Origin: a virus
DNA: 44,603 nucleotides
Virus record (IMG/VR): IMGVR_UViG_3300043774_000313
Span: 1-44,603 of that record
Strand: one strand, 5' to 3'
The position numbers and the translations under genes are program-made. Positions 448 to 40,132 of the stretch are shown piece after piece. The notes under the pieces are model-generated. The model searched no databases. It saw only the letters and a program-made list of their open reading frames with translations, and was not told where the DNA came from. The stretch's first letter is position 1, and every line of letters begins with the position of its first letter.

Positions 448-451
448 TTCT

Positions 452-19629: not shown

Positions 19630-22600
19630 CTATTTCTTGACCATCGGATAGGGGATAGATTCAACACCAGATACGGGCACATCGGCCACTACGCCTTTAC
19701 CCATCTTCTTCAGGCTCTTCTGCATTAGTTTGTAGTAAGCGACGATGTCTTTGTTTGTTTCGTCAACATCAGAATCCTCAATAGAAACACCCGAAATTGC
19801 TGCTCTATAGATCATTTGCCGGGTCTCTGGAGACAGCGTAGGCTCGTCTCCTAGTCGGTCGTAAAGCTTGTCTGTCGGCACAACAACATCGTTCGCAGTG
19901 ACTGTTCGCCCACTTGAAACATGGTGACACATTGTTGTTGAATAGAAGTTGTCATCGTCGGCAGTGAGAGGAATTGGGGTCTTGTTGTCTTCCGTGGCGG
20001 GAGTGTCTGGCTTCATAATCAACTGAGGCATGGATGAAAGTTTCCCACTTGCATCAGCCTTGGTTGCTGGCTGCTCTGGAATCAGACCAGCTTTCCTTGG
20101 AGGGATAGCACCAGTAGTGATCGTTGCGGCGTTCTGTGCTTGCAGTTCTGTCTCAAGAGCCTTCTTGGCGAGGGCACCCTCAACAAGCGAAGCATGAGCC
20201 TGGTAAGCAGCCTCTTCACCATGTCGGTCAAACCCACGTCCCGTAGCGGCATGGCCGAAAGCGTCATGAATTGCTCTGAATCTGTCACTCTGTTCATCGT
20301 CCCACAATGGGTGTTTCTCGTCTGGTGTAGTCCGTTTGACTTTGAGAGTCTTGTTCATCTCAATGTCGTCAATCATCTCAAGATGGCTTCTGTACGGGTC
20401 GTTGTCTACAAACTCAACGTTGATACCCATGTCCTTGGTAAGCAAGGAATATAGGCGATCGGTTTCTGTACGCAGGTCTTCGTACGCCTGTTCGGCTTCC
20501 TTAGACACGACTTCCATCTCCTCGTAAGCGCGGGCAAGTTCCTGCCTTCTCTCCTCGGTCACAGCCTTAACCTTTGAGTAGTCCACCCCTCCAGGAAGGA
20601 CAGCAGCAAGTGCGGGTGATGGTTCAGCAATTATTGAGTCAAATCCTTCAATCTTGGCGGTGCGTATCCTGCGATCAGCGACTCGCTTTGATGCGATGAA
20701 CCTTGCTTTGCCTTCTTCGGCGAAATAGTTGACATCTTCATACTTCTGAACCGAGTTCTGTGACGCTTTGCCCAGAATATGCTTCCAAGCTTCCTGGTCG
20801 TGAACGACAAGAGTCCCATCTTTGTAGGCGGCAATCGTGTACGGATTACTGTGATCTTCGTTGTTTACGATTTCAAGATCGTCATAGACCCCATTCTGAA
20901 GACCATGCAATACGGCTCTCGCAACGTCAATGTGCGTATCAATAACAACCGACGGAGGAACTCCCCTGCCTGTCTCTTCCTGCCTTCTCTCAGCCTCAGA
21001 TACAGCCATAGAGATAGGGACATCAGCGATTCTTCCCTTGATGATGTAGCCATTCTCCCTAAGAGCATTCATTCTTTCAGCAAACGCCCTTGGGCCTCCA
21101 TCGCCAGTACTGTCAACTACTACATGAAACCCTTCTTCGGAGGCTCTCTTGATTGCAAGTTTCTGAATGTATGTTGATTCCGAATGAACAAGTTCTGCTG
21201 CTTGCAAAGGATCCATTCCTCTTTCCTGCAACTCTTTGACGAGAGTGTCAAACTCAGGAAGCATGTGCTTGATTTCGTCGGCATCAAGATGAACGGCTTC
21301 ATTACCGCGTTGAGGCGTATCAAAGAAACCACCCTGCCTGAGGAATGTCTTTCCGCTTGCAGGTCCTCCACCCATCATCCAAGCCATTGGCTTGTCACTC
21401 CTGCGAGGTGACCATTCACCGTTGCCAAACATGATTGACTCAATGATTGAATCGTGAAGGGCTTGCCTCTCGGGAGTTATCATCCCTGACCCAAGACCAA
21501 AGTGCTCAAATGTGCTTGTCATCTTGCCGTTTGGTTGGATTAAATCGTCTACTGATGCGCCCTTGTGATCCCCAGCAGGTGCTGGCGCATGTGCGAAATC
21601 TCGTTGAGTTTGAACAAGCCTGTAGTGGCTCTTTCTTGATGGAAGCAAACCCCTCAACCTTGAGGACGCCAGCGGCTGAGGAACATCTTGAGTGATGTCT
21701 GGTACGAAGATGTTCTTCTCTGGTTCGCCACCTCTGAGTTCGTTAATAGTTTCTTCAATCCTCGTGGAGATACCTCGCGCAATTCGTCTGTTCTCTCGAC
21801 CCGTGGAACCTTCTGACGAAACAACACGCACCCTTGACTTTGGTTTCCTGCCACGGACACGTGATCCAGCACCTCTGACAGCATCTGCTACATCGGTTGC
21901 GAAACCAACGAAACGACGCTTCAACGGTTCGTTCTCATCAATCCAACCATCACGATCGGCATCACGAGGGAGAGACTTTGTTGAAACCTCATCTGGATTT
22001 CTGATACCACTACAAACCGAAACAAATAGGTCTCCGTTGTCCATAACGGTAAATGCCTTCTTCTTGCGTTCTGATTTCTCATCAAGCCATTCCGACATCT
22101 TTGCCCAACCATCTGCTTCAGGAATGGGGTGACCTAGTTTCTGCGCAGATCGTGTCTCTGCCACCATCTCAAAGTTGTTCACATTTGCATAAGGACTCAC
22201 TTGTGAACGGAAACCAGAGTTGTCTATTGTCGCAACTTCTTCATCGGAAAGTCCGTCAAACGGTCTTGACGACCACAAATCATCTATTGCCTGATAGTTC
22301 TCGGTCATGAATAGCTGTCTTGCGAGAAGACGAGCCTCTGTCGTGGACATGCCTTCGGCGACAAGCTTGGCCTCTATTTCATTGATTGCATCACTTGTTT
22401 CTCGCGGAGAAAGACCATTCATTTCCCCTGCTTTGTCAACACCATCAAACCCAATCTTGAAACCGATATCTTCAAATGACTTAGAGAAATGAAGAACATG
22501 ACTCCATTCGTGAGTAGAAACATAAGCACCGTACATCTCATCAATGTCTGATTCTGGAATCCCTTTCTTCAATGCGTCCCTCACAACCGCATCACACCAG

Positions 22601-24228
22601 CCATCGGTAGATTTAGGATTAGCAGGAATATTCTTTACTGCTCCTCTGCCTACTGTCGGATTGATGTCAATGTAGCCACCAATCTTGCCGTTACGAACCA
22701 TAACCCCAGCAAGACCGATATAACCACCAATGCGATTATTGTGAATCATTCTGCCAGTTGAAGACAACACCAACATTCCATCGGCATACTTCTTGCTGTT
22801 CATTCCTTCATGTAATAATCCGATAATGACACCACGCAAGGTTGCTGGGATTTCTCCATCGTTCTCTTCGATATCAAAGTCAAACTCAACGAGCTTCTTG
22901 AACACCTTCTTCAGTGCTTTGTGGGCCTGTTTCTCTGTCTTTATCTCGCCAAACCTCTGTTCGACGGTCTCTTTCATCTTTGCGTAATTAGCAATAATGT
23001 TTGCTGGATCAGAATCAACACGTTTCTTCTCATCGTTATCTCCACCAAGAGGCATCAGAGCAGCGCGACGTCCTGGTTCACCAACCATCCTTGTTGGTGC
23101 TGGCATCTCTCGAGTTTCGCCATCGTAAACAACACCATCTCCGTCACCGTCTAACGGGATAGCACTAGAAAGGTTTCTAGGAATCTTTGGCAACGCTTTG
23201 GTCTGTTGACCCCAAGGATGTTCTTTCTTCAGAAGGTCATTATCGGCGATGTATTTCGGATTATCCGGCCTGCCAGAAGAAAGCATCTTGAGATACGCCT
23301 CTACTCGCATCTCTCCCCATTTGGATCTATTACCTAAATCGGGTCGGTTGAGTGAGTCGAAAGCAGCAACACCACGCCTCATGACGGACTTCAGTTCCGA
23401 AGCAGAAGCAAACGACCATTGAGGCATCCCAACTGATCGCATCTTCACGTTGTGTTCCCTCGCGGCGACAATCAACGACTTAGTTGCGTCTTGAGTGATT
23501 GAAACAGATTTAGCGTTCCTCCTGCTAGTCCTGCTTCCACGGATTGATTTCTTGCTTCTAGAGAAAGCTGAGGCTCTCGCTACTTCCCTGCGAACAACGC
23601 GTTCAATTCTTTGCTGTTCAATACGTCCACGTTCGTTCCTGTACGCACCCTGACCCGTACGACGATCAAAGGTCACCCCCGTAGTACAAGGCATCCATAC
23701 CTGCCTGCCGGAAGATGTTGTGTACCTGCGAATACCAGTACAACCGACTTGAGCGGCCCTCATACGTGCAGCGTCGGGACTAGTGAAAGTGTCTGGATCT
23801 CCAACCTCTGGAGTGAAAGGTGCAATACCTTTACCTCCGCCACCCATGTCGCCTGTTATCCCTGGGCCAGATCCACTAGAAACAATCCCACCCATTGGAC
23901 TCGCCGGCATAGCTGGAGGAGCAGAAACAATCCCTGCTGATGTGCCAACCATTCCGTAACTTCTCTCGGTGAGTTTCTCCCACCGTTTACGATCAACAAG
24001 TTTGCGGCGTTTCCTACCTGACGATGAAATCTTTATTTCATTCGCAGCCTTAGGCATAGAGAACGGCACTTCAAGATTTGACCCTGCAGCTTCGGATAAA
24101 CGGTTCAGTTCTTCTGCGCTCCCACAAGGCATCCATGTGCCATCAACTTGATGTGCGCCAGAACAACCAATGTTCTTGGCCATCTCAAGAGCGTCGTCTT
24201 TAGAAACTGATTTCTTCTTATCAGCCAT
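19630..24228 (-). CDS. Giant modular protein with zincin and zeta-like P-loop domains
   Basis: 1532 residues from the ATG at 24228, which overlaps the upstream stop as TGATG (a GTG at 24237 is an alternative). In order: two Cys motifs of the form GCSG...WMPC (about 22-35 and 162-181); a basic region; a Ca-loop-like DGDGDGVVYDGE (about 360); a zincin segment STHEWSHVLHF (HExxH near 573-577) with a possible third ligand in NNFEMVAETRSA (near 690); another loop DADRDGWIDENE (near 756); a P-loop domain with GGGPASGKT (about 953-961), HLDADEIK and FHVVVDSTG, like zeta toxin kinases; a helical linker; and RAIHDAFGHAATGR, a His-rich block. No membrane segment. Placed just before the capsid gene, it may be packaged in the head. 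The overall role is unknown. Confidence 0.85.
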   Translation of the reverse strand: MADKKKSVSKDDALEMAKNIGCSGAHQVDGTWMPCGSAEELNRLSEAAGSNLEVPFSMPKAANEIKISSSGRKRRKLVDRKRWEKLTERSYGMVGTSAGIVSAPPAMPASPMGGIVSSGSGPGITGDMGGGGKGIAPFTPEVGDPDTFTSPDAARMRAAQVGCTGIRRYTTSSGRQVWMPCTTGVTFDRRTGQGAYRNERGRIEQQRIERVVRREVARASAFSRSKKSIRGSRTSRRNAKSVSITQDATKSLIVAAREHNVKMRSVGMPQWSFASASELKSVMRRGVAAFDSLNRPDLGNRSKWGEMRVEAYLKMLSSGRPDNPKYIADNDLLKKEHPWGQQTKALPKIPRNLSSAIPLDGDGDGVVYDGETREMPAPTRMVGEPGRRAALMPLGGDNDEKKRVDSDPANIIANYAKMKETVEQRFGEIKTEKQAHKALKKVFKKLVEFDFDIEENDGEIPATLRGVIIGLLHEGMNSKKYADGMLVLSSTGRMIHNNRIGGYIGLAGVMVRNGKIGGYIDINPTVGRGAVKNIPANPKSTDGWCDAVVRDALKKGIPESDIDEMYGAYVSTHEWSHVLHFSKSFEDIGFKIGFDGVDKAGEMNGLSPRETSDAINEIEAKLVAEGMSTTEARLLARQLFMTENYQAIDDLWSSRPFDGLSDEEVATIDNSGFRSQVSPYANVNNFEMVAETRSAQKLGHPIPEADGWAKMSEWLDEKSERKKKAFTVMDNGDLFVSVCSGIRNPDEVSTKSLPRDADRDGWIDENEPLKRRFVGFATDVADAVRGAGSRVRGRKPKSRVRVVSSEGSTGRENRRIARGISTRIEETINELRGGEPEKNIFVPDITQDVPQPLASSRLRGLLPSRKSHYRLVQTQRDFAHAPAPAGDHKGASVDDLIQPNGKMTSTFEHFGLGSGMITPERQALHDSIIESIMFGNGEWSPRRSDKPMAWMMGGGPASGKTFLRQGGFFDTPQRGNEAVHLDADEIKHMLPEFDTLVKELQERGMDPLQAAELVHSESTYIQKLAIKRASEEGFHVVVDSTGDGGPRAFAERMNALRENGYIIKGRIADVPISMAVSEAERRQEETGRGVPPSVVIDTHIDVARAVLHGLQNGVYDDLEIVNNEDHSNPYTIAAYKDGTLVVHDQEAWKHILGKASQNSVQKYEDVNYFAEEGKARFIASKRVADRRIRTAKIEGFDSIIAEPSPALAAVLPGGVDYSKVKAVTEERRQELARAYEEMEVVSKEAEQAYEDLRTETDRLYSLLTKDMGINVEFVDNDPYRSHLEMIDDIEMNKTLKVKRTTPDEKHPLWDDEQSDRFRAIHDAFGHAATGRGFDRHGEEAAYQAHASLVEGALAKKALETELQAQNAATITTGAIPPRKAGLIPEQPATKADASGKLSSMPQLIMKPDTPATEDNKTPIPLTADDDNFYSTTMCHHVSSGRTVTANDVVVPTDKLYDRLGDEPTLSPETRQMIYRAAISGVSIEDSDVDETNKDIVAYYKLMQKSLKKMGKGVVADVPVSGVESIPYPMVKK

Positions 24229-24524
24229 CACACCCACGTACGAATGTACTTCTCCGCAATCCTTGCGTTTCTACCTGTCATCTCCATTGACGAACAACCA
24301 GAGAACCGGTTATTCCAACTGTCAACATAGTCGTAGTAGAACTCTTCAGCCTCCTCTGGATCAAGAGATAAAGAGTTGCCGTTTAGCACCCCAAGTTTGC
24401 TCTTGTACGGCGACCCAGCGGGAGCATGGAACCTAAGCATTCCGTTCCTGAGAGTAATCATCGCAATCGGTTTATCGTCTGACCCAACATCGGTGTTGTA
24501 TACCAGGGCAACCATGTCTTTCAT
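24228..24524 (-). CDS. Unrecognised small protein between the giant genes
   Basis: 98 residues; the start overlaps the upstream stop as ATGA and the stop overlaps the next ATG as TGATG, so it is tightly coupled on both sides. An N-terminal beta-like half (MVALVYNTDVGS, IAMITLRNGMLRF) is followed by an acidic helical part with two tyrosines and a tryptophan (EEFYYDYVDSWNN). Beta-grasp-like or KTSC-like small domains have this look, but I cannot assign one. Confidence 0.75.
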   Translation of the reverse strand: MKDMVALVYNTDVGSDDKPIAMITLRNGMLRFHAPAGSPYKSKLGVLNGNSLSLDPEEAEEFYYDYVDSWNNRFSGCSSMEMTGRNARIAEKYIRTWV

Positions 24525-24955
24525 AGCGAGTCCTTCATTGCGAGAGAGTTAAGGAAAGCAGCCATTGTCTCTGATTCTGATCCTATAGCCCATTCGGAAT
24601 CCTCAATCACCAAAGGTCTAATCAATGAATCTTTGTCTCTGTCTAGAGTGTCAATGATGATTCCTGAGTCAATCTTGTTCAGTGACGCAGGTTTCAGAAT
24701 CAAATAAGGAAGATCTAACGGAGCTAAAGAAATAACACCTTGTCCGTTCTCGTCCACTAATGATCCAGACATAATCACCATTCTTGCCGTGGGATCGTTG
24801 AGATAGGAGTGAACCATCGGCCTGTCCGTGCCGAACATTTGTATTTCTTCTTCGTCAGGATCGTCTGACTTTGATGTGGTTGGCCATGGGGCGACCTTCT
24901 CGTACTCCGACACAAGGTCGGCGAACTCCATCACTCTCTTTGATTCACTAGCCAT
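24521..24955 (-). CDS. Unrecognised small acidic protein
   Basis: 144 residues, acidic, with several hydrophobic strands (ARMVIMSGSLVDENG, LPYLILKPASL, GIIIDTLD). Starts 2 bases after the giant gene's stop and overlaps the next gene by 4 bases. No family recognised. By position it may be a partner or chaperone of one of the giant proteins. Confidence 0.75.
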   Translation of the reverse strand: MASESKRVMEFADLVSEYEKVAPWPTTSKSDDPDEEEIQMFGTDRPMVHSYLNDPTARMVIMSGSLVDENGQGVISLAPLDLPYLILKPASLNKIDSGIIIDTLDRDKDSLIRPLVIEDSEWAIGSESETMAAFLNSLAMKDSL

Positions 24956-24957
24956 GA

Positions 24958-27900
24958 TTACGCCACCGTCTTTCCTGGTACATCAATCTCCGCACCGTTA
25001 AAGAAGGTATTGTAAACAGTCACTGCAGCGTTCTTCCCAATCAGTTGCTCTAAGCCTAAATTGCTAAGAACACGATAGTTTCCAGCTGCATCCCTAACGA
25101 CATGGAACTTGACATCAGCATTCTCTGAGGCGGCCTTCAATGCGCGCTTCTTTGCTGTGGTCACATTAGGAGTCTTCTTCAACCCCTTGTCACCCCAGTA
25201 GAAATAAGCGGAATTAAGATTTGTTGGTATGTCGCCTGGAAGTACAACCAATTCTTCTGTTGGCTTATTGAGAGAAGACTTTGACGCAACGCTGAATCCG
25301 TGAAGCGAACTGCTTGAGAAATTAGGGCCAAGCATCTTTCTTGCGCCGTCAGGAGACGCAATGAAGAAGTCCTCTACGGGGATGCCGTTAATTTCATCAA
25401 TACCTTGGTCTTTGTAAATCTTGATGAGGTTCAACCTTCTGTTTGCGGAGTATCCACCATTTAGAACGACACCCTTCATCTTGTCTAGTGTCGCCGCACC
25501 ATCAGGAAGGAACTCGAAAGTTTCTTTCTTACTCATGTTGCCAACAGATGTCTTAGAGGAAACCGAGTTAATCCTTCCACTATCAGGGTTGATTACGCCG
25601 AATGGGCCATCATGAGGACCATGTGCCCACCATCCGATATCTCGGAGCATTGCTTCACCATCAAAGATGACATCGGTTCCACGGGTGGTCCATACATCCT
25701 TGTGCTTCCCAGTAGTAGCCACAGGGGTCATGAATACTCCCTTGCCACCGCCGGTACCAAGATCTTCTTGTGCCGAGGCTCCACCGCCACCGCCACCAAC
25801 CGATGTTCCACCAAGACCGAATCCTGCTGTTACCTGATCAGCCTTACTTAGTACTCCACCAGAAGTAATCATGCGCGTAATGTTTGCCTCATCGGCGTAT
25901 GCGTTCATCGTCTTAATCATCACATGACCAGATTCTTTGAGACCAGGGTTGTTGGTCTGCACTCGAGCCCATGCTTCGTCACTAAGCCTGAACCTCATGC
26001 GACCCATAGAGTCAAAGTAAGGCTCAAGATCGTTGACCGTTAGTCCTTGCTCTGAAGCAACTCTTGCTAGTCGCGTTCCGAGTGGTTCTTTCATCTTTGT
26101 TGGATCAAACCCATCGTATGTCCTCACCAACAGTTCGGCAGCCTGTGCTTTCCATTGGTCATCAGCTGTGTAACCAGAATCCTTGATGCCTATCTTTGCA
26201 AGAACATCATGTACCTGTTGAGGGGTTGGTGCCGTGTCGCCTGCGAAATGAACCTGCACAGTACCTGCCGTTGAGTACGCACTTCCTGCGGTTCCTGTAT
26301 TGACGATGATTACATGTCCCTCTTCAGTCTTTGCGATGATATGAGCCGAGGCGGTATCTCCAGCAGTTCCACCGATTTCCGTCAAATTAGAGTTGTAACC
26401 GTTGGGGTCTCCAAGATCAGCAGTGCGTGGATCCGCTTTGAGAACTCCGTTATCCGTCCTGAAGAACTTATGTTGTCCTCCGATAGACAGGATTTCAACA
26501 CCTGAACCAGAGGCATCAATCTTTGCTGCCAAGGAAGCCGCTAAAGCCTTTGCCTCATTGTCATCAATAGCCAGTGTCATTGTTGTCAGGTTTGGGGCAC
26601 CGCCGGCTACTGGTGTTACATGGATTCTTGCCCCGCCCTTGACCTGTCCGCCACCGATTGAAACATAATGATGGCTTCCGACATTTGCCTGTGCAGCTTC
26701 AAGTGCCGAAGTGACCGTCTTTGCATTCGGAAGAGCTGGAGCGTTTCCGAACGCTTCTTCACCAGCAATCGGTTCAGCCTTCGTCATCTTGGAAACCGTT
26801 TGACCAGGTGAAGTTACTTTCTTCGGAGTCTTTGACGCCTTGAGTAGACCAGTACCGACTTCGTTCTCAACCGTCTGACGTGCAGTAGCAATTTCTTCGT
26901 CGGACATTCCGAGTTCTTTCAGCATTGGATCAACATACGAGGCAATCCTTGCTTTCTTCTCATCAAGCCTTTGTGCTGATTTCCTGACAGTTGCTGCGTT
27001 TGCGCCGGAAAGGTTCTGACCAGAAATCAACTTCTCCGCTTCTTCTGCGTAATCAGTTGTCTCTGCGCGATGAACAGCGTGAAGTACTGCCTCAGCGAAA
27101 CGTTGCTTGCGTTCTGGGGTCGTCATTGACTCCTTGGCAAGTTTCCATGTTCCATCACCATCAAGACCCGTAAACATGAAACCAAGCTTGTCTTCGGTTG
27201 CTTGAGAGTTTGCACCCTTCGGCATCTTGTTGCCGTCTTTGTCAAAGAACTTGTGTTGCTTGAAATCACCGAAAGCGTTACCGTGGTCAATTGGGTGGTA
27301 TTGAACCGTTCCATCTGGGTTCTCAACAGCAATCCAGTTATGACCTTGCCTGTCGTAGTACCTAAACATTGAGTCCATGACGACTCCGCCTGCAAGCGAC
27401 TCTGGAGTAAGCCTTGAGATAACCTCTTCGCGCTCAGCTTTAGGCATATCCCTGACATGGCCAAGGTTCTTACCTTCGTAAAGCATCTCTGAAGACTCAA
27501 GAAGAACGCTGAACTGTTCGGATTCAGGGTTGGAATCTGGATGCGAGTATTGGGCATACTTATTTGGTGCAGTAAAGATGACGCTTGCCGTACGACCACC
27601 AGACGATGGGAAACCAAGGGTCTGCATGACTTGGTTGCCGAATAGTTCGCGTGCTCCTTCTTGGTCGTTCCTCGTGGCTGACTTGAGAACAAATGTATGT
27701 CCCGTAGCGGTATCAAGGAAACGATGAGTCTTCTTCTTCTCGTCGGGAGCGTACGAGTCGTTGTATCCAGATGCCTTTGAGAGGAACTTGAAACGCCCAC
27801 TCTTTCCGGCTCCTTCACGGTGCTGCCAAATTGCTTCAAGAAGCAAGTCGTTAGGAACGTCTGCAAGGCTTCCGCCCGTCGCAATGAAGTCATCAAGTTT

Positions 27901-30900: not shown

Positions 30901-33900
30901 GTCCCTTTCCGCTTGGGACATGGATGCGGTTTCTTTGACCGATACGGACTTCGGAAGGTTCTGTGGCGAGAATAAATCTTCACCACTGATCTTGTAGCCG
31001 ATTTCTTCCGCCAGTTTCTCTCTGGTGTAATCAATGTCAAGCATTAGTGATTGAAGTTCGTTAACCTTGCCAGTCTCGTCGTCAATCTTCAAGTCAGAAA
31101 TGTAATCAGTCAGCTGCTTTCTCAGGTCATCCAACGCTTGAAGCTTCTGTTCATCGCTCAAAGTTGAATCAGAAATCTCGTTGAAGATATTCTCCGCGTT
31201 GACTATGTTGTAAATCTTCTTGTCTGAGTCCAGATACCAAGAACCCTTGAATCCGGATGTATCAAATGCGTTCTCAAAGTCTTCCAACGCGGCATCAAGA
31301 TAGTCAAGCTGCTCTGTTACGAGGTCGCCCAACGGGCCATCTTTGCCAAGGCTCTCAAGTTCGTACTTGATGGTTGCGTGCTGGTTAAGCCAGTCTGCTT
31401 TCTGAGATTCCGTCCAGTTGGCTACATCGGTGTCTTGGAAGTTGTCAATCAGATTGGCGACGTTGTTTGTCTCCATATCCAATTTCGGAGCAATCTCCAT
31501 AGCTTTCTCTGTATCAAGATTGAGAGAGAGTTGTTCAATTTCCTTGTAGACATCATTTGAGGCAGCATCCATCTCTGCCGCCTTGTCAATTTCCTCATCA
31601 ATCTTTAGATCGCTTGAGTACTTGTCAATTTCGTACTTGAGATCCCAGAGATCATTCATCTTGTCGATGGTGTCTTTGTCGGAACCAAGGATTTCCTTCA
31701 CCGTGTTCTTGTAGCCAGAAAGAGCAGACCCGGTTGGAGACTCTTTCTCTTCGGTGCCCATCGCCTTGATCTTCTTCTTGGCTGCAAGACCATAAGTCTT
31801 GGCGGCATTCTTGAAGTCTTTAGGGGTCAATCCAGTAATGGCTTCTGTTTCTAGAAGCCGAATAAACACCTCGGCTGCGTCCATCTCGGCAGGATCTTCT
31901 GACCCCAACATCCTCTCAGCGAGAGCGTCCATGAGTTTGAGCTTGTCGTAACCGTCGTACTTACCGCCAGGCTTGAGGTCGTCGGCGATTTCCTTCATCT
32001 GCGATTCAACATCCTTGAAGTGACTCTTCGCCTCTTCGCGCACCGTTGTGCCGTTCATGTCGGCTATATCTTGCCCTTTACCGTCCACCCATGCGTCAAG
32101 ACTAAGGTCGGGACCCAAATCGGTCATCGGATCCATAACAGCACCTGTTGCTGGGTTGAACCATGTGGGGTTCTCGTCCTTGCCAAGAGGTTTGTTATTC
32201 TTGACGGACTTCTTGGTTTCAAAGTACTTACTGGCCTTAGCGAAAGAATTAGACAGTAGGAGGCTTCTAGCGTGAGCATCAAGATACTTGTCAAGGTTCT
32301 CCTGATTCGGAATAGCCGTGTACATCGCCACCGAAGCTTGATAATCCTTCTCCGCTTTCTTGCGATCAGCAATCCACTTCTTGCTGTCAAACGAACCGTC
32401 AGGCTTCGTGTAAGCCTCGTAGTTAGCGCCAACGCTGTCTTTGAACTTCTTAGCTGCCACGGTCTCAAGTGCAGTCATTTCTTTGGTGAAACGCTTTGGA
32501 AGACCAGTACTTTCAAGCACGTCGCCAGCATCTACAACTTCCTTAGATGCACTCCTCTTCATGCCGTATGTTTCGGCCATCTCTTTGAGGGTTTCAACAC
32601 TAACAATGTACGGAGGCTGAGTAGACCCAGAAGGAATTGGCTCTACTGAACCGTCTGTCTCGAAACCATCAAGTTTCTCGTACCAAGCATCAACCAATTT
32701 CTGGTCAGGCTTAGGCTTACTCTTCCCGTCCCATGAAGGCCCGTACAAACCTTGAAGCATTGCATCAAGTTCATCCTTGAGTGAATCATGCTCTTTGAGA
32801 GAAAGTTTCTTCTTCTCAACCTTGGACTTATCAAGTTCGGCCTTGAAGAACTCGTCTACGACATCCTGAATATCTTTGCCTGTGCCAATGGTTAAATCAA
32901 TGATTGCAATGTTGTTTCGTATACCTACAAGTTCGTCTTCATAATCGTTGTAGGCACCGAAAGCCTGTATCTCCATCGGAGTCAAAGACTCAAGTTCGGC
33001 AAGAGCCTTCTCAAAGACCTTCTTGTACTCGGTTAGTTCTTTGTCGGAGTAAACACCCGCCATTGAGGCATTAAGAGATTCAGCATCCGCCAAGGTAGAC
33101 AGCTTCGCTTCCAAGGCGTCGTCAAGTTCCTTCTTAGTAGGAACCTTCTCCATCGTCTTTAGGTACGAACCATTGATCTTGGCAAGCTCTTCCCGGAGGA
33201 TGTCAACAACCTTGTTCTGTTCATACGAATCAAGAATGTCGTCCAATTCAGCAATAGACATCTCAAACGAGTCTTTGTCTCCGTTGGTCCATTCGGATGA
33301 TGGTTTGGTCAAATCTTCTTTGAGTATCGCCATTGCGAACTGGATTTGCCCGCTCTGCCCTGTCGTAATCTTCTTTGGCTTGGATTGTTTCTCAGGCTTG
33401 ATTCCGTCTTGGGTGTTTGTCTCGGCGGCCTTTATCTTCTCGTCAAGGATCTTGATGTACTTATTAGCCCAGTCAACGGCAGGACCTTCTTTGCCAATTG
33501 AATCACGCATATCCTTCCAGGCTTCGCGTACCTTCTTGAGTGTTGCGGCATCGCCGTCTGTGGACAGTTTGTCCCACGACGACTCGGGGTGTTTACCGAT
33601 CAACGGCCAGTTCTTCAGGTTTGGTATTTCCTGCGGGCCACCTGTCCATGTGGGGGATTCATCTACAATCTTACCCTTGTCTGCATTTGGGGTTGCGTCT
33701 TCTTTCGGCTTGAAAGCTGGTGCAGGCTTGAAGTACTTCTGGTCGGATGTGTAAACAGGCTTAATACCCATTGCATCAAGACGATCTTGATCCACAACCC
33801 TGAAACCTTGATCCGTCTCAACGACGTGATACAGACTGCCATCAGCAGAAGAAAGTTCGTTGGCGCGCTTTGCTGCTGACTTCTCGTTCTTGAACGGCCT

Positions 33901-35451
33901 GCCGAACTGCTTGCCACCAAGTTTCGGGGTCTTCTTCTTTGCGTCGTCAACAACTTCAGTCTTCGGAAGAGTCTCATCAAGCGTAGGCATTGGTGGTTCG
34001 CCAGGAATCTCACCTACGGGTTTCGGCTTGCTTTCCTTCTTTGGCTTCTTGACCGGGTCGGTCATTCCCCATGCGACTTCGTTTCCTTTATGATCGAAAG
34101 AAGCAACAGGTTCAATACCTAAAGCTTGAAGTTTCTCGTCGTCAACAAGAGTGGCAAGCCCGTTATCTAATTTGACAACATGGAGATGGTCGCCCTCTTC
34201 AAAGTCTTTGTCTGGATAGACGCTGTTCTTGATGTTTCGAGCCTGATCAATGGCTGTATCGGTGGTGGCAAACTTTCCTCCACCAGACCAACCAGCCGTA
34301 TCATCAAGAGCTTTCTGGCTTGTTGAATCTTTCTTCTTCTTTACTGGTGCGCCATCACGCGCAATCATTGAACCGGCCTTGTAGGAAGCAATTGGCTTAG
34401 CCTTCATGGCTTTCATGCGTTCGTCGTCAACGACAATCATCTTGCCGTCTTCGTCCTTTACGACATGAAATACGACATCTTTCTTCTTGCTTGATGCGTC
34501 CTTTGCTCCAAGGAGTGCAGAGTTCTGATCTTTGTGGGCGGTACCAAATGCTTTACCAGGGAGTTTCTCTTCCGATACGGCAGTAGCGGTCATATCCTCA
34601 GCAGCGGCTGATCCAGATGGTTTCTTCTTCCAGTTCTCAATCGCTTCGGCCCACGCATCAGGTTCTTCTACAACTTCAGGTGTCTTTGGTGTTGGCGTTA
34701 CCGCTTCTGGGATATCGGCTTCAGGAGCATCTGCTTCTGGTGCCTTCGGCTTGCGTGGCTTCTCTGGTACTTCTGAAGGTTTGTCTGTCGGGGAAAGACC
34801 GAGATAGTCCATCACCCTTGTCTTCTTCGGCTTCTTCGGCTTCAGTTTCCTTGCTTCAACACGAGAAGCGACATCGTCAAGACGACCTGCAATACGCTCT
34901 TTGAGTGGCCCACGCTGTTCGCGCCTGCTCTGCCTCTCATCAAGCTTGTCTGCGCCTTGTTCAAGAATGTTTGCAAGCCTGCGCTTGCCTTTCTTGATCT
35001 TCCTCTTGGCGCGCTGGGTGATGCTAGGGCGTTCCCATGGAGTGTTGTCTTGAACTAACCCGTCACCGTCAGCGTCCTGCGCATCGGGGTCATAAGCCTG
35101 TGCCCCTCTGCCGATGCTACCGAGGGCTTTGATATCAATGTTGCCGATGCGATCAGCCCAGACAATCATTGAATCGGCATTAGCAAGAGACTTGTGAGCG
35201 ATTTGCGCCCGTGAAGAGAAAGACTTTGTCGCTACTTCAATGCGATCAGAGTGAACCCGGTCAAGAGAACCGTACGGAAGACTTTGATCTAAGGGGTAGA
35301 CGATTACATCAACGTCAGAAGAGATGTCCTTCTGAGACAGGACGAGACCTTTAGAAATCCTATTTCTCGTCCTTGCAGTAAGCGCAACAGAAGACCCCCG
35401 AATGGCGGCCTTGTGTTGAAGGATCGAGAACTCTACTCGTTCTTTACGCAT
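24958..35451 (-). CDS. 3497-residue giant modular protein
   Basis: One uninterrupted 10.5-kb frame. In order: N-terminal 110 residues of basic/mixed sequence; DADGDGLVQDNTPWERP (126-142); a Lys/Pro-rich linker; three HVV modules (about 300-573), with later copies near residue 1973 and at the C-terminus (FHVV at 3449-3452); a very long acidic/lysine-rich helical region (about 600-1900) that looks like coiled coil; a mixed alpha/beta region; a PI3/4-kinase-like domain (about 2575-2730) with YYDRQGHNW and YHPIDHGNAF as catalytic-loop and metal-binding motifs; then a Gly/Ala-rich region and a final alpha/beta part. No membrane segments. A tape measure is unlikely given the capsid context and enzymatic domain. 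It may be a virion-internal polyprotein; the role is inferred. Confidence 0.85.
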   Translation of the reverse strand: MRKERVEFSILQHKAAIRGSSVALTARTRNRISKGLVLSQKDISSDVDVIVYPLDQSLPYGSLDRVHSDRIEVATKSFSSRAQIAHKSLANADSMIVWADRIGNIDIKALGSIGRGAQAYDPDAQDADGDGLVQDNTPWERPSITQRAKRKIKKGKRRLANILEQGADKLDERQSRREQRGPLKERIAGRLDDVASRVEARKLKPKKPKKTRVMDYLGLSPTDKPSEVPEKPRKPKAPEADAPEADIPEAVTPTPKTPEVVEEPDAWAEAIENWKKKPSGSAAAEDMTATAVSEEKLPGKAFGTAHKDQNSALLGAKDASSKKKDVVFHVVKDEDGKMIVVDDERMKAMKAKPIASYKAGSMIARDGAPVKKKKDSTSQKALDDTAGWSGGGKFATTDTAIDQARNIKNSVYPDKDFEEGDHLHVVKLDNGLATLVDDEKLQALGIEPVASFDHKGNEVAWGMTDPVKKPKKESKPKPVGEIPGEPPMPTLDETLPKTEVVDDAKKKTPKLGGKQFGRPFKNEKSAAKRANELSSADGSLYHVVETDQGFRVVDQDRLDAMGIKPVYTSDQKYFKPAPAFKPKEDATPNADKGKIVDESPTWTGGPQEIPNLKNWPLIGKHPESSWDKLSTDGDAATLKKVREAWKDMRDSIGKEGPAVDWANKYIKILDEKIKAAETNTQDGIKPEKQSKPKKITTGQSGQIQFAMAILKEDLTKPSSEWTNGDKDSFEMSIAELDDILDSYEQNKVVDILREELAKINGSYLKTMEKVPTKKELDDALEAKLSTLADAESLNASMAGVYSDKELTEYKKVFEKALAELESLTPMEIQAFGAYNDYEDELVGIRNNIAIIDLTIGTGKDIQDVVDEFFKAELDKSKVEKKKLSLKEHDSLKDELDAMLQGLYGPSWDGKSKPKPDQKLVDAWYEKLDGFETDGSVEPIPSGSTQPPYIVSVETLKEMAETYGMKRSASKEVVDAGDVLESTGLPKRFTKEMTALETVAAKKFKDSVGANYEAYTKPDGSFDSKKWIADRKKAEKDYQASVAMYTAIPNQENLDKYLDAHARSLLLSNSFAKASKYFETKKSVKNNKPLGKDENPTWFNPATGAVMDPMTDLGPDLSLDAWVDGKGQDIADMNGTTVREEAKSHFKDVESQMKEIADDLKPGGKYDGYDKLKLMDALAERMLGSEDPAEMDAAEVFIRLLETEAITGLTPKDFKNAAKTYGLAAKKKIKAMGTEEKESPTGSALSGYKNTVKEILGSDKDTIDKMNDLWDLKYEIDKYSSDLKIDEEIDKAAEMDAASNDVYKEIEQLSLNLDTEKAMEIAPKLDMETNNVANLIDNFQDTDVANWTESQKADWLNQHATIKYELESLGKDGPLGDLVTEQLDYLDAALEDFENAFDTSGFKGSWYLDSDKKIYNIVNAENIFNEISDSTLSDEQKLQALDDLRKQLTDYISDLKIDDETGKVNELQSLMLDIDYTREKLAEEIGYKISGEDLFSPQNLPKSVSVKETASMSQAERDIHYESVIGELDAKLDKAKKALDYEAIKNIINEKGDLLKKKLLEDFDYAQNNPKKVSPDSPVPFKTSKQIDAADKDNATELVISTELGAAKDNLIDYLGKSGIADTSLLYLEETNLPDGETGEQWVVKSVAGERALRKSLVEKLRSKVENGDDIGEIAALRTHLHNFDVLTRDGSYSSENAPDMTAIDRFNHLGPSAQKGIIKSLSNSEVDFKKAALAKIGTKKQTKKQVAEDIKKIEESVNPPEPEAPKIQNTSASAVSAQIEEVKAGGGKINQAFIDAAPEGAILGVVSDWEKANQEVNDGNAPKFKGKTGILHYFENDDSKVGYWVDEKFTKNDELGAWQETVPHMYSYDGKDSDGNPIPAGVIGGSIATQWVKGDFTPSEGSPLFEKASLSTSDEYSLINDIVNPFEHAFMDSSSKNFDNINLYSTDAGKTFDKDFYEKFGSNGGVVVKDSDGLFHVVKRSEWKALTGEQQDQFAVIRDIKPVWSTWAGSEVGTGKLPNDFVDLTESEKLDVVTAWMNQPAMTLDGFPNAYALQNSGLISSTSDLLGLDNEESRQNIAHYVEQVQVEINNGKGPDEEMAFYSVKFGDADPVILRIKGSNILLADKYPAIFQKIGGFDSSGSYTDYVGEMTSDSSKTIGKVLSNPDDNDWMEAEGIDAAATFAVANNWAEKLDGGGSSLASKKLEEANVRLADMKKQFDMVFDGKDISKMSEDEIKAAFTEKGLDHDSFVTKMRSTLIRRQAAKAWLANNAAYNLDSMETVAEVNKNLLAGVYNDPKDLLPAINDATEQANIAKKMMEEAAEALNSGVLGDKSTAEHITDYISAKQKMKASIGTEKQIKEIASQFKDKKYAGKTVLIVDGEERFLKQGSVFHENSPSVQQAADVATAIAPILKQGQQLGIFKISDDKYAVIDMEEAINANMAAPEAIFTNAVPGSIPIADATDVMDLMTSPGMPKVKEGYAGIENLGVSAPNGVAIGKFVPSGLPTDASDELIATEAAKLDDFIATGGSLADVPNDLLLEAIWQHREGAGKSGRFKFLSKASGYNDSYAPDEKKKTHRFLDTATGHTFVLKSATRNDQEGARELFGNQVMQTLGFPSSGGRTASVIFTAPNKYAQYSHPDSNPESEQFSVLLESSEMLYEGKNLGHVRDMPKAEREEVISRLTPESLAGGVVMDSMFRYYDRQGHNWIAVENPDGTVQYHPIDHGNAFGDFKQHKFFDKDGNKMPKGANSQATEDKLGFMFTGLDGDGTWKLAKESMTTPERKQRFAEAVLHAVHRAETTDYAEEAEKLISGQNLSGANAATVRKSAQRLDEKKARIASYVDPMLKELGMSDEEIATARQTVENEVGTGLLKASKTPKKVTSPGQTVSKMTKAEPIAGEEAFGNAPALPNAKTVTSALEAAQANVGSHHYVSIGGGQVKGGARIHVTPVAGGAPNLTTMTLAIDDNEAKALAASLAAKIDASGSGVEILSIGGQHKFFRTDNGVLKADPRTADLGDPNGYNSNLTEIGGTAGDTASAHIIAKTEEGHVIIVNTGTAGSAYSTAGTVQVHFAGDTAPTPQQVHDVLAKIGIKDSGYTADDQWKAQAAELLVRTYDGFDPTKMKEPLGTRLARVASEQGLTVNDLEPYFDSMGRMRFRLSDEAWARVQTNNPGLKESGHVMIKTMNAYADEANITRMITSGGVLSKADQVTAGFGLGGTSVGGGGGGASAQEDLGTGGGKGVFMTPVATTGKHKDVWTTRGTDVIFDGEAMLRDIGWWAHGPHDGPFGVINPDSGRINSVSSKTSVGNMSKKETFEFLPDGAATLDKMKGVVLNGGYSANRRLNLIKIYKDQGIDEINGIPVEDFFIASPDGARKMLGPNFSSSSLHGFSVASKSSLNKPTEELVVLPGDIPTNLNSAYFYWGDKGLKKTPNVTTAKKRALKAASENADVKFHVVRDAAGNYRVLSNLGLEQLIGKNAAVTVYNTFFNGAEIDVPGKTVA
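33732..34551 (-). repeat. Three tandem HVV protein modules in the giant protein
   Basis: Residues about 300-365, 391-457 and 513-573 share the pattern K/G-x-F-(G/A)...K-x-x-A-x-x-(A)-x(about 10)-(F/L/Y)HVV-x-x-D-x-G-x-x-x-V-(V)-D-x-(E/D)-(K/R)-(L/M)-x-A-(M/L)-(G/K)-x-(K/E)-P-(I/V)-x-(S/T). Examples are FHVVKDEDGKMIVVDDERM, LHVVKLDNGLATLVDDEKL and YHVVETDQGFRVVDQDRL. They are separated by Lys/Pro-rich linkers. Two more copies occur far downstream in the same protein. Diverged at DNA level. Confidence 0.75.
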
Positions 35452-35510
35452 GTCCCCGTCATTCTGTAGGCGTTACCAACTGCAAGAGGTTACCATTCAG
35501 CAAAGCCCTG

Positions 35511-35798
35511 TCAGGACAAAGGAACCTGTTGTTCGGATTCTTCCGTTGTTGTCATTGAGTCAATCTCGACTCTTTCAGCGCGTGTAGGCACTCTCGGCCC
35601 GTCAATCTGGAAACTCTCCCCCAACGACCAGAGGATTTGAGAAACAAGCCTTCTCTGTGATGATGGCAATAGGTCAACCCATTTCTCCCATTCTTTGCCT
35701 TGTTCTGAAAGACCAATAACGTCTACTCCTTCGTCTTTCTCTACGGCAAGAGCAAACTTAGTTCCGTTCTGGTTGTTAATCTTCGCTATTGCCTTCAT
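35511..35798 (-). CDS. Unrecognised small protein
   Basis: 95 residues; the ATG overlaps the stop of the 891-residue gene (TAATG), so translation is coupled. A beta-like N-terminus (KAIAKINNQNGTKFALAVE) is followed by a helical segment with WEKWVDLLPSSQRRLVSQILWSLG and a hydrophilic tail. No family recognised. It sits directly before the giant gene. Confidence 0.75.
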   Translation of the reverse strand: MKAIAKINNQNGTKFALAVEKDEGVDVIGLSEQGKEWEKWVDLLPSSQRRLVSQILWSLGESFQIDGPRVPTRAERVEIDSMTTTEESEQQVPLS

Positions 35799-38473
35799 TA
35801 GATGTTGACTCCCAATGTCCTAAGAAACATCTTCCTTGATGATTTCATCTGGTTGACACGAGAAGAGAACAGACGTTTGACTGTTTCAAGATGGTTCTTC
35901 TCAGCATCGGTGATTCCAGCAATTTGAAGCCTTGAAATATAAGCGTCCCAGTCAAACATTTGTGCGTTCTTCAGTAGGTCCTCATACATTTGAGCGACCT
36001 TTGCCTTAATGCTCTCCTGTTCCTTGATCTTCTCTAGTAGCCACCTAGCGGATCCGTCCTGCTTGAGGTACGCAGGCAAGTCAAGACCCGTGAACCTGCC
36101 ACCTGCAGCAAGAACGTTTCTTCCATTGGAGAAGGAAGCAACATCAACACCCTGCCCCTTCAATGGAACAACAGTTCCTGGGGTACGCCCCTCGTTGTTC
36201 GTGAGGTAGTCAAGCATCACAAGACGAGCGATGTCTGAGGATTGAACATCAGAAATAGCCATGTCGTAATCAGGCTTACCCTTATCAAACGAGTCTGGAA
36301 TCTGAACAAGAGAACGCCTGTCGTTGGCTTTACCAACAATCAAAGAAGATGGAGCTGGGACACCGAGAGCGTTAGCAATATCGTTGCCGACGACTGTTCC
36401 AAGATGAGAAACCCCAGAACCTTTAGTCTCGACCCATACTGTCCCATCGGACATTGTCACTAGCCTTCTGCCATTGCCGTAATCAGTGGTCTTTGCCTTG
36501 TCAATAACTGAACCCCTCTGGAAGGAATCAGTAGCCAAGAGGGATTCCATTGTGGCTTCAATCTTCTTGCCTGTCTCAACAGCCTCGTCGTTGCCCTGTA
36601 CGGAAACAGTATCTACGATGCTCCACGATTCTTGTGATTTGCCCTTACCCTTTGAGTCTCCTGACATCCAAGATTCGTAAATCCATCTAGCGACCGTCTT
36701 TGTTTCGTTGCCTTTCTTTACGACAACAAGTTCGTTTGGCTTGTCGATACCAGGGAAGCTTTCTGTATAGACAAGATCCCCCTTGGAGTCTCTAACCATT
36801 TGCCTCAGAGCCGCGCCACCTTCATCACCTGAACGCCTAGCGGCTTCTAGGCTCCTGCGTAAAGCAGCGGCTCTTCCTTGACTTATTGGCTTAGTAGCAG
36901 AGATGCCGAGTTCTCCAGATCCAGGCAATGCGTATCTGATGCTTACGATGCCGGCTCCAAATAAAGAAACTTCGTTTCCTCCGATATTTGTAGGAGATCC
37001 GAGTGTTGTAATCCATGTGCCACCCGCAATATCTGGATTCTTTCTCTGCTTGGCAATCCTGTTGACATCTGCAACAGGGGAAAGAACAACACCGTCGGCT
37101 CTAATCAGCCTGCGATAATCACCACTTACGGAGTTGGCGGCCCGAACTTCTTTGGCTACGACTTCTTCCATCTTCTTTGCTGAGGCTTTGGATATTGGAG
37201 GGATTTGTGCTGCGCGTTGAATTGCAATTGGGGATCCAAGATATTGACCACCTTGAACAGCTTCACCCCTTCGGATTGATGGGGCACCAACAACAGAAGT
37301 TCTTCCTCTACTATTCACGCCGTTGGCAGCATTTGCAGCAGCAATTAAAGCCATCTCGAATAGTTGTGTTCCACAGTTGGAGAAAGTGTTGTTAGCGAAT
37401 CGTCCTCCGTGTTCATAGCCAGGAGGACAACGCCTGACTTGATTTCCGCCGATGCGAGCCAGCATTCTTCCTCGACCACCACCACCGCCTCCAGGTGTTA
37501 AAGCTCTGTATGCAGTTGACCTAACAGGACTACGAAGTCTTGACATATCACCAGGAATCACATAAGACACAGCAGCCTGAGCTGCTCTTCCTGCGCCACT
37601 GCGTGTCCGAACTAAACCAGTCTTTGCACGTAAAGACAGGTTGTCTCCCGTTGGTTCGTGAAGAATTGTGCGTTCACCAGAAGCAGTAGCAATGATTGCC
37701 ATCTTTATGTCAATCAGATTCTGCCTTCTAGAAATAGAACCAGTCATGATTGACGACTCGTGGAATGAAACAACATCATCGGCTTTGGAGTTGAGCCTGA
37801 GAGCGAATGGTTCGGTTGTTTCTTCGCCTCCACAGTCATTGCATCCGCAACCACAATCATCCTTGATTGGGTCTTGCTTCTTGTTCAGTGAAGCAGAGTA
37901 ATGAAACACATTTGCTATCTGCGCAAAGGGATCAACTTCCTCTAGTAAAGACTTCTCGCTCGCCCTGACAATCTTGTTAACCCATCCGATTGCTGCATTG
38001 CCACCCCAAGCGGCCCATGCGACTCTTCCGGGTGATGGGTAACCCTCGTCGCCTGGACTCCATCCTTGTCCTTGCTTGTCAACATTGTGCCGAGCTAAAT
38101 ATGACTTCATGCGTTTGATTGTTGCAAGAGAAACAGGTGATCCTGAAGCAAGTTGCTTTGCTCGCGCTCTACCAACATCAGTAAAGCCATCACCGGCGTG
38201 TCCTTCTGACATCCATTTCAAGGCGCGTTTGGCTTCTTCCACTACTGCTTTAGGAGGCGAGAAAGAATCTTGAGACTTTACAGAGACACGTGATTCAAGA
38301 ACGTCTTGAACATAACGAACCTTCTCATCCCACACCGAAGTGATTGTCTGATCAGGGTCATCAATTGCCGAGAGCATCCTCTCGGTGTCTTCAGTAAGAG
38401 TTGCTGACCACGACTTGGTGGACAACCTTCTACCGTTTAGGGCTTTACCCGCGATGCGCTCGTCGGCGTCCAT
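35798..38473 (-). CDS. 891-residue modular protein with a degenerate kinase-like domain
   Basis: In order: a helical N-terminus; a segment of about 80-170 with ARAKQLASGSPVSLATIKRM, SYLARHNVDK and RVAWAAWGGNAAIGWVNKIV, a small domain recurrent in phage head-region proteins; a Cys cluster CGCGCNDCGG (near 207); a Gly/Arg-rich part; a CPPGYEHGGRF...NCG motif (near 350), also recurrent in actinophage structural proteins; a mixed region; and a kinase-like segment (about 680-800) in which the catalytic loop reads DYLTNNEGRTPGTVV, where PI3/4-kinase/HipA relatives have D-R-H-x-x-N. The key residues are replaced, so it may be a pseudokinase. It follows the acidic 85-residue gene by 8 bases. Probably virion-associated by context; function unknown. 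Confidence 0.85.
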   Translation of the reverse strand: MDADERIAGKALNGRRLSTKSWSATLTEDTERMLSAIDDPDQTITSVWDEKVRYVQDVLESRVSVKSQDSFSPPKAVVEEAKRALKWMSEGHAGDGFTDVGRARAKQLASGSPVSLATIKRMKSYLARHNVDKQGQGWSPGDEGYPSPGRVAWAAWGGNAAIGWVNKIVRASEKSLLEEVDPFAQIANVFHYSASLNKKQDPIKDDCGCGCNDCGGEETTEPFALRLNSKADDVVSFHESSIMTGSISRRQNLIDIKMAIIATASGERTILHEPTGDNLSLRAKTGLVRTRSGAGRAAQAAVSYVIPGDMSRLRSPVRSTAYRALTPGGGGGGRGRMLARIGGNQVRRCPPGYEHGGRFANNTFSNCGTQLFEMALIAAANAANGVNSRGRTSVVGAPSIRRGEAVQGGQYLGSPIAIQRAAQIPPISKASAKKMEEVVAKEVRAANSVSGDYRRLIRADGVVLSPVADVNRIAKQRKNPDIAGGTWITTLGSPTNIGGNEVSLFGAGIVSIRYALPGSGELGISATKPISQGRAAALRRSLEAARRSGDEGGAALRQMVRDSKGDLVYTESFPGIDKPNELVVVKKGNETKTVARWIYESWMSGDSKGKGKSQESWSIVDTVSVQGNDEAVETGKKIEATMESLLATDSFQRGSVIDKAKTTDYGNGRRLVTMSDGTVWVETKGSGVSHLGTVVGNDIANALGVPAPSSLIVGKANDRRSLVQIPDSFDKGKPDYDMAISDVQSSDIARLVMLDYLTNNEGRTPGTVVPLKGQGVDVASFSNGRNVLAAGGRFTGLDLPAYLKQDGSARWLLEKIKEQESIKAKVAQMYEDLLKNAQMFDWDAYISRLQIAGITDAEKNHLETVKRLFSSRVNQMKSSRKMFLRTLGVNI

Positions 38474-40020: not shown

Positions 40021-40132
40021 TGGTTGTTCCTCCGTTGTCTTTCGGGGTAATCGATACTTCCCCATTGATAATAGGGAGAGTGTCGGCAGTTCCGATAGAA
40101 CTGTACAGCATCCCCTTTCCTTTACAGATCAT
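40013..40132 (-). CDS. 39-residue ORF coupled to the prohead protease gene
   Basis: The ATG at 40132 overlaps the protease stop as AATGA. The frame runs 39 codons (starts MICKGKGMLYSSIG, then a hydrophobic LPIINGEVSI stretch) to a TGA at 40013-40015, eight bases inside the next gene. It exactly fills the 108-base gap between two genes, with coupling geometry on both sides. Too short for a family call; it could also be a non-functional translational bridge. Confidence 0.45.
   Translation of the reverse strand: MICKGKGMLYSSIGTADTLPIINGEVSITPKDNGGTTNG

What the first reader, a model, noticed from the sequence alone, without database searches (positions are those of the whole stretch)
19630..38473. 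Giant modular proteins inserted between prohead protease and capsid genes: candidate virion-packaged effector system
The leftward cluster runs protease, acidic proteins, 891-, 3497- and 1532-residue proteins, then the major capsid protein. In HK97-type phages the protease and capsid genes are usually adjacent or a gene apart. The intervening proteins carry enzyme-like modules (zincin, zeta-like P-loop, PI3/4-kinase-like) joined by Lys/Pro-rich or acidic linkers, without membrane segments. One explanation is a set of polyproteins co-packaged in the head, matured by the prohead protease and injected into the host.
Basis: partly seen in the sequence, partly recalled or inferred. Interest (0 to 1): 0.82.

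Follow-up and report, generated by a model that had tools for sequence, protein, structure and literature searches.

The report
Phage giant effectors beside prohead protease
Between its head-maturation protease and capsid genes, this uncultured tailed phage carries very large multi-enzyme proteins that are probably loaded into the virus head and injected into the bacterium; in close relatives such effectors are fused to the protease itself.

Summary
On the minus strand the order is S78 prohead protease (783 aa), acidic 438 aa, 85 aa, 891 aa, 95 aa, 3497 aa, 144 aa, 98 aa, 1535 aa, then an HK97-type capsid gene, with about 22 kb between protease domain and capsid. It is not chance or misassembly: 28 of 28 IMG/VR relatives with both genes keep them on one strand 15-36 kb apart, and all 26 intervals read in full hold at least one ORF of 1000 aa or more. 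Cultured cousins (Gordonia Gray and GMA6, Brevibacterium Cantare) keep protease and capsid adjacent. The tail module with its own tape-measure-position gene lies elsewhere in the same phage, so the giants are not tape measures. Modules: zeta-toxin kinase (secure), an atypical PI4K/CtkA-like kinase with intact catalytic residues (good), an HEWSH zincin-like site (motif only). In 11 relatives the S78 protease and the polyvalent-protein metallopeptidase MPTase-PolyVal share one open frame (up to 4736 aa, also with ArdC-N, UvrD helicase, exonuclease or sigma-region-4 domains). The nearest cultured zeta-bearing giant (P-SS2 ORF030) was detected in virions by mass spectrometry. Best reading: head-packaged polyvalent effectors. 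Packaging, cleavage and injection are untested here.

The parts
40129..42480 (-). S78 prohead protease (domain at residues 23-171; catalytic-type His in GHDWN and Ser in EWSIGYKT) with a 610-aa C-terminal extension
   Evidence: PF04586 1.1e-12, phrog_80 7.7e-27; same His and Ser motifs in fused giants
38749..40065 (-). acidic 438-aa protein, scaffold-like; N-terminal part equals the C-terminus of the GMA6 protease
   Evidence: blastp 52% over 82 aa to GMA6 protease residues 379-460; D+E 23%
38482..38739 (-). 85-aa acidic protein
   Evidence: ORF only; D+E 24%
35798..38473 (-). 891-aa conserved head-locus protein
   Evidence: homologues about 680 aa in the same slot in over 40 relatives
37793..38275 (-). 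module of the 891-aa protein that in cultured phages is fused to prohead protease (phiPsal1) or lies in capsid/portal ORFs (S-CBS, CRP phages)
   Evidence: phrog_2859 8.5e-42
35804..36511 (-). C-terminal kinase-like region lacking the DRxxxN catalytic site (proposed pseudokinase)
   Evidence: family alignment, DxLTDqRxR in place of DRxxxN; inference
35511..35798 (-). 95-aa stand-alone copy of the stub A domain that begins giants in relatives
   Evidence: blastp 45% to N-termini of 1005- and 1047-aa giants
24958..35451 (-). 3497-aa giant protein
   Evidence: open frame; C-terminus 94% identical to a near relative with dN/dS 0.11
35032..35106 (-). junction motif DADGDGLVQDNTPWERP in the 3497-aa protein
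26887..27999 (-). atypical kinase module (residues about 2485-2855)
   Evidence: invariant K, E, DR..N, PIDxG; model pLDDT 70.5; Foldseek PI4KIIalpha 1.2e-4, CtkA 3.2e-4
24521..24955 (-). 144-aa protein, conserved next to the giant in nearest relatives
24228..24524 (-). 98-aa protein, conserved in nearest relatives
19630..24237 (-). 1535-aa giant: head-locus stub + zincin-like + zeta kinase + phrog_3170 domain
   Evidence: dN/dS 0.07 against L002
23638..24237 (-). stub B anchor (two DUF3721-like motifs), a stand-alone protein of about 240 aa before the capsid gene in most relatives
   Evidence: PF12518 7.5e-12
23083..23166 (-). junction motif DGDGDGVVYDGET between anchor and zincin-like module
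22078..23037 (-). zincin-like region (HEWSH; SPYANVNNFEMVAE)
   Evidence: motif pair also in L017, L021, L069, L071; fold not confirmed
21898..21978 (-). junction motif DADRDGWIDENEP between zincin-like and zeta modules
20839..21408 (-). zeta-toxin kinase domain (Walker A GGGPASGKT)
   Evidence: PF06414 2.7e-21; PDB 1gvn 3.2e-9; P-SS2 ORF030 3e-28
20071..20595 (-). phrog_3170 domain, also in Rhodococcus phage E3 gp205 (annotated structural protein) and C1 mycobacteriophages
   Evidence: phrog_3170 6e-36
18154..19491 (-). HK97-type major capsid protein
   Evidence: PF05065 7.3e-42

Best explanation
The 891-, 3497- and 1535-residue proteins are head-locus cargo of the polyvalent-protein kind. 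A conserved head-binding stub or the protease itself carries enzyme modules (zeta kinase, atypical kinase, zincin-like peptidase) into the prohead with the scaffold; the S78 protease and/or the zincin trims them; they leave with the DNA and act on the new host in the first minutes. Shown: gene order, domains, conservation of the arrangement, protease-polyvalent fusions in relatives, a separate tail module. Inferred: packaging, cleavage, injection, targets.
For: Same slot in 28/28 relatives. S78 and MPTase-PolyVal in one open frame in 11 relatives, in phase, with ArdC-N, UvrD helicase, RNase_T or sigma-70 region 4 in those scanned; MPTase-PolyVal absent from 14 control genomes. Zeta in 17/39 records; NUDIX, DnaJ, RNase_T, ART, GNAT and HTH domains in giants at these positions. 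Stubs stand alone in some relatives and begin giants in others; giant sizes trade between protease fusion and stub B (Spearman -0.72). A shared junction motif, 37 in cargo and 8 in other ORFs, 0 in shuffles. The p891 module is fused to the prohead protease in phiPsal1. P-SS2 ORF030, a 1500-aa MuF-zeta protein, had 96.5 virion peptides. Separate tail module.
Against: No virion proteomics was found for this group. The window phage has no Pfam MPTase-PolyVal hit and no fusion of cargo to its protease; its zincin-like module rests on motifs. The 3497-aa protein is mostly unassigned and may be partly scaffold. No capsid-type cleavage signal was found in the giants. P-SS2 uses a different head module (MuF), so its virion data carry over only by analogy.
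Confidence: 0.72

Rival explanations
1. The giants are an enlarged prohead scaffold or core whose enzyme-like domains are mostly structural leftovers, degraded before or after packaging and not delivered as active effectors.
For: Position between protease and capsid is where T4-type phages keep core and scaffold genes (own knowledge); acidic neighbours; p891 kinase-like region looks catalytically dead.
Against: Catalytic residues are kept in the kinase and the zeta Walker A is intact; relatives carry varied enzymes incl. NUDIX, DnaJ, helicase, exonuclease, which scaffolds do not need; strong purifying selection.
Confidence: 0.13
2. The giants are late-expressed cytoplasmic effectors that merely sit in the head operon and never enter the virion.
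For: No direct virion data for this group; the zeta toxin could act before lysis (inference).
Against: In-frame fusion of polyvalent domains to the prohead protease in 11 relatives; stubs fused to cargo; P-SS2 zeta giant in virions.
Confidence: 0.08
3. They are external head proteins (decoration or head fibres) or other virion structural proteins without effector role.
For: Large Lys/Pro-rich linkers; GMA6 has a head-fibre gene between portal and protease.
Against: Kinase and zeta folds with intact active sites; cargo domains act on intracellular substrates.
Confidence: 0.05
4. They are tape-measure or tail proteins.
For: Size alone.
Against: The same phage has sheath, tube, chaperone, a 1513-aa gene in the tape-measure position and a baseplate gene in order, in the 23 kb to the left of the window.
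Confidence: 0.02

Closest known systems
Phage-type polyvalent proteins (Iyer et al. 2017, PMC5512222)
   Same: Giant multi-domain proteins in the late/virion gene cluster; zincin-like peptidase, zeta-type kinase, other protein kinases; relatives here carry MPTase-PolyVal and ArdC-N themselves.
   Different: Here the S78 protease is at the N-terminus of the fused polyproteins; Iyer et al. found assemblin-like peptidases always at C-termini. Cargo also sits on dedicated head stubs, with a shared junction motif. The kinase here resembles PI4K/CtkA, not evidently the group they describe.
MuF-linked giants and MuF polymorphic toxins (P-SS2 ORF030; Jamet et al. 2017 PMC5576092)
   Same: Head-targeting N-terminal part with toxin-like cargo incl. 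zeta; the P-SS2 giant is in virions.
   Different: No MuF domain on the giants; in this phage MuF is fused to the portal.
T4 internal proteins and jumbo-phage ejection proteins (SPN3US, PMC5694885)
   Same: Head cargo ejected with DNA, part of it trimmed by the prohead protease.
   Different: Not multi-enzyme giants of this type; SPN3US and T4 proteases cut C-terminal to glutamate at defined motifs, a specificity not known for this S78 enzyme.
Bendigovirus and Cantarevirus head modules (Gordonia Gray, GMA6; Brevibacterium Cantare)
   Same: Capsid 45-47% identical; about 1000-aa proteins, and in the Gordonia phages a VIP2-like ADP-ribosyltransferase, in the head operon.
   Different: Protease adjacent to capsid; large proteins lie between portal and protease; junction motif absent.
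N4 virion RNA polymerase
   Same: Head-packaged giant of similar length (own knowledge: about 3500 aa) that contains a zincin-like domain.
   Different: No RNA polymerase domain detected in the 3497-aa protein.

Membership tests
Phage-type polyvalent proteins | two or more unrelated domains in one polypeptide | tested here: met
   1535-aa protein: DUF3721 stub, zincin-like site, zeta, phrog_3170
Phage-type polyvalent proteins | encoded among late virion genes | tested here: met
   between S78 protease and capsid, 28/28 relatives
Phage-type polyvalent proteins | zincin-like MPTase (common hub domain, about 36% of members) | tested here: inconclusive
   window phage: HEWSH motif pair only, no Pfam or fold match; relatives: PF18818 in 14/39
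Phage-type polyvalent proteins | transferred into the host with DNA | not testable with these tools
   needs infection experiments
MuF polymorphic toxins | N-terminal MuF domain on the giant | tested here: not met
   no PF04233 on the giants; it is on the portal fusion
Tape-measure proteins | lies after the tail chaperone in the tail operon | tested here: not met
   a separate 1513-aa ORF holds that position
Prohead-protease substrates or ejection proteins | cleaved by the prohead protease at a common site | tested here: inconclusive
   no motif shared with the capsid N-terminus found; junction motif of unknown role
N4-type virion RNA polymerase | single-subunit RNA polymerase domain | tested here: not met
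   no Pfam or PHROG match
Zeta-toxin kinases | Walker A and zeta fold signature | tested here: met
   PF06414 2.7e-21; PDB 1gvn alignment with GGGPASGKT
PI3/4K, HipA/CtkA-like atypical kinases | catalytic K, DRxxxN, IDxG | tested here: met
   invariant in 10 relatives; only kinases among Foldseek matches at E<=0.001

The most novel reading that the evidence does not exclude
A modular cargo-loading system: the protease-to-capsid interval has a fixed skeleton with exchangeable cargo slots (C-terminus of the prohead protease, a slot before p891, stub A, stub B). Enzyme cargo is appended after head stubs at a common D-x-D-x-D-G..(E/Q)RP junction and released inside the prohead, so the head-maturation protease doubles as an effector loader and activator.
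Probability: 0.35. Interest if true: 0.82.

Novelty: new variant of a known kind. Interest (0 to 1): 0.66.

Why it matters
Phage polyvalent proteins were proposed to be packaged mainly on the basis of gene neighbourhood and fusions to virion domains. Here polyvalent domains are found in one open frame with the prohead protease, in many relatives, which ties the effectors physically to head maturation and gives a concrete, testable loading and release mechanism. The shared junction motif and stubs suggest a modular way to load very large enzymes into phage heads, of interest for early takeover of hosts and for protein delivery research.

Tried and rejected
Tape measure: rejected, separate tail module. 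Complete circular 44.6-kb genome (PAPS-reductase genes at both ends): rejected, a second record extends 23 kb to the left. A K-S prohead cleavage motif shared by capsid and giants: not conserved in 84 capsid proteins. Zincin fold by AlphaFold2 and Foldseek: low confidence, no match; PDB sequence search: none. phrog_3170 domain in PDB: none. Junction motif in cultured phages by tblastn: no match, though short low-complexity queries are weak; not seen in the stretches read of Gray, GMA6, Cantare and E3. Link between the Asp/Asn beta-hydroxylase gene and the motif: no association. Close relatives of the whole 3497-aa protein: only the same phage and one near relative. The kinase module in cultured phages: none.

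Full report
OBSERVATION. The window is a 44,603-base linear virus record. On the minus strand it encodes an S78 prohead protease (40129-42480), an acidic 438-aa protein, an 85-aa protein, an 891-aa protein, 95 aa, 3497 aa, 144 aa, 98 aa, 1535 aa and then an HK97-type major capsid protein at 18154-19491. The protease domain ends about 22 kb from the capsid start. The giants show no membrane segments and evolve under purifying selection comparable to the capsid: dN/dS 0.07 for the 1535-aa protein, 0.11 for the C-terminus of the 3497-aa protein, 0.06 for the capsid.

NOT A TAIL OPERON, NOT A WHOLE GENOME. A second IMG/VR record of the same phage (G004, identical over 35,322 bases) extends 23 kb to the left. 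There lie, in order, tail sheath, tube, assembly chaperone, a 1513-aa gene in the tape-measure position, an endolysin-type gene and a baseplate gene. The phage is therefore a myovirus whose tape measure is elsewhere, and the window is a fragment.

CONSERVED ARRANGEMENT. The capsid is 45-47% identical to Gordonia phages Gray and GMA6 and Brevibacterium phage Cantare. In all three the protease is directly before the capsid gene (in GMA6 by homology). In IMG/VR, 80 loci with 69-100% identical capsids were fetched. Of 39 whole records, 28 had a detectable S78 domain: in all 28 it is on the capsid strand, 15.3-35.9 kb away, median 23.8 kb. The 26 intervals read in full are 96-99% coding; all have an ORF of at least 1000 aa, and 33 ORFs reach 2000 aa. 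A skeleton recurs: protease, 350-550-aa protein, a slot often holding a giant, small genes, the p891 homologue (about 680 aa), stub A, a small gene, stub B, capsid. In one group the protease ORF is 2.9-4.7 thousand residues and the stubs are about 240 aa; in another the protease ORF is about 785 aa and the stubs become giants of up to 3927 aa. Protease-ORF and stub-B sizes are inversely ranked (Spearman -0.72, n=26, not corrected for relatedness).

STUBS AND CARGO. The first 200 residues of the 1535-aa protein (two DUF3721-like motifs) are a separate protein of about 240 aa right before the capsid gene in most relatives, and the N-terminus of giants in others. The 95-aa protein of the window matches the N-termini of giants in relatives. 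The 891-aa protein carries near its N-terminus a module that in cultured phages is fused to the S78 protease (Pontimonas phage phiPsal1) or lies in capsid or portal ORFs, which points to the head.

JUNCTION MOTIF. A signature close to FDPxAxDGDxDGxVQ(D/E)GTxFERPA occurs in otherwise unrelated cargo proteins: 37 strict matches in 213 kilo-residues of ORFs upstream of the capsid, 8 in 231 kilo-residues of other ORFs (mostly large ORFs near the capsid), none in shuffles. Near-identical relatives are counted separately in these figures; 40 distinct contexts of a looser form were seen. In the full-interval set it is 29 inside (212 kilo-residues) against 3 outside (91 kilo-residues). In the window it is at residue 126 of the 3497-aa protein and at residues 363 and 759 of the 1535-aa protein, that is on either side of the zincin-like region. 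It also occurs in protease-bearing ORFs of relatives. It looks like a calcium-binding-type acidic loop used as a domain junction; a role in sorting or cleavage is inference.

ENZYME MODULES. Zeta: PF06414 2.7e-21, PDB 1gvn 3e-9 with an intact Walker A; it is found in 17 of 39 relatives. Kinase: residues about 2485-2855 of the 3497-aa protein align with nine relatives with an invariant lysine, glutamate, DRxxxN and PIDxG; the AlphaFold2 model (pLDDT 70.5) matches only kinases at E<=0.001, led by PI4K type II alpha and including CtkA and CotH. TM-scores are low (0.2-0.35 on the query), so this is a fold class, not a substrate. The p891 C-terminus looks like a version without the catalytic site. 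Zincin: HEWSH plus SPYANVNNFEMVAE 105 residues on, with equivalents in the stub-B giants of L017, L021, L069 and L071; the fold was not confirmed.

LINK TO POLYVALENT PROTEINS. Giants in the same interval of relatives carry NUDIX, DnaJ, RNase_T, helix-turn-helix and sigma-region, ADP-ribosyltransferase and acetyltransferase matches. Some repetitive helix-turn-helix matches (L052) may be inflated. Decisively, PF18818 (MPTase-PolyVal) lies in the same open frame as the S78 protease in 11 relatives, in phase and with no stop. Two of these proteins were scanned whole: 4736 aa (S78, sigma-70 region 4, KTSC, UvrD helicase, RNase_T, ArdC-N, MPTase-PolyVal) and 4202 aa (S78, UvrD helicase, ArdC-N, MPTase-PolyVal). 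At least two pairs of the 11 records are near-identical, so about nine are distinct. The S78 His and Ser motifs are kept. Iyer et al. 2017 describe assemblin-like peptidases in polyvalent proteins, but always at the C-terminus.

VIRION EVIDENCE BY HOMOLOGY. The best cultured-phage match to the zeta region is in ORF030 of Prochlorococcus siphovirus P-SS2 (30% over 246 aa, 3e-28), a 1500-aa protein that by inspection has a MuF-type region before the zeta region. Its published table lists 96.5 detected peptides in purified particles, under the name major capsid protein (PMC2784084). The other good cultured match, for the phrog_3170 domain, is Rhodococcus phage E3 gp205, annotated as a structural protein; the basis of that annotation could not be checked.

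MECHANISM. Likely steps: (1) late expression with the head genes; (2) entry into the prohead through stub domains or the protease; (3) trimming by S78 and/or the zincin; (4) ejection with the DNA; (5) zeta kinase acting on cell-wall precursors and the kinase on unknown targets. Steps 1-2 are supported by gene order and fusions; steps 3-5 are inferred from SPN3US and T4 (PMC5694885) and from Iyer et al. The host is probably an actinobacterium: cultured relatives, a resuscitation-factor-type lysin domain, and a 72% capsid match in an Actinomycetota MAG contig. This is not shown; weaker capsid matches lie in MAGs of other phyla.

NOVELTY. The class (head-packaged polyvalent effectors) is known. 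The variant is new as far as the library searched shows: N-terminal prohead protease fused to polyvalent domains, a fixed cargo locus between protease and capsid, interchangeable carrier stubs and a shared junction motif. Papers outside the open-access library were not searched.

Noticed in passing
window 9905-12094 (+): Portal protein fused to a C-terminal Phage_Mu_F domain (PF04860 1e-50, PF04233 1e-10), on the strand opposite to the head cluster.
   Followed up: no
window 17539-18087 (-): Aspartyl/asparaginyl beta-hydroxylase directly after the capsid gene, matched in 31 ORFs of the fetched relatives; no association with the Asp-rich junction motif was found.
   Followed up: partly
window 12282-14724 (-): C5-cytosine methylase appears split over three ORFs (N-terminal part 13426-14724; 12282-13076 looks like the C-terminal part).
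   Followed up: no
window 1-1597 and 43960-44603 (-): PAPS-reductase-type genes near both ends of the record; the window is nevertheless a fragment.
   Followed up: partly
window 42833-43963 (+): Protein with a signal-peptide-like N-terminus and two transglycosylase-type domains, one of resuscitation-factor type (PF06737), just upstream of the protease on the other strand.
   Followed up: no
window 24958-35451 (-), 3497-aa protein: Short unit with an HVV..d.G...V.D.E pattern repeated several times in the N-terminal part and again near the C-terminus; meaning unknown.
   Followed up: no
L019:11638-17058 and L023:2301-8741: Large ORFs (1806 and 2146 aa) shortly after the capsid gene in relatives carry the same junction motif twice, so cargo may also sit downstream of the capsid gene.
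   Followed up: partly
G020:C1:21207-27824: 2205-aa ORF outside the protease-capsid interval with the junction motif at residue 76.
   Followed up: no
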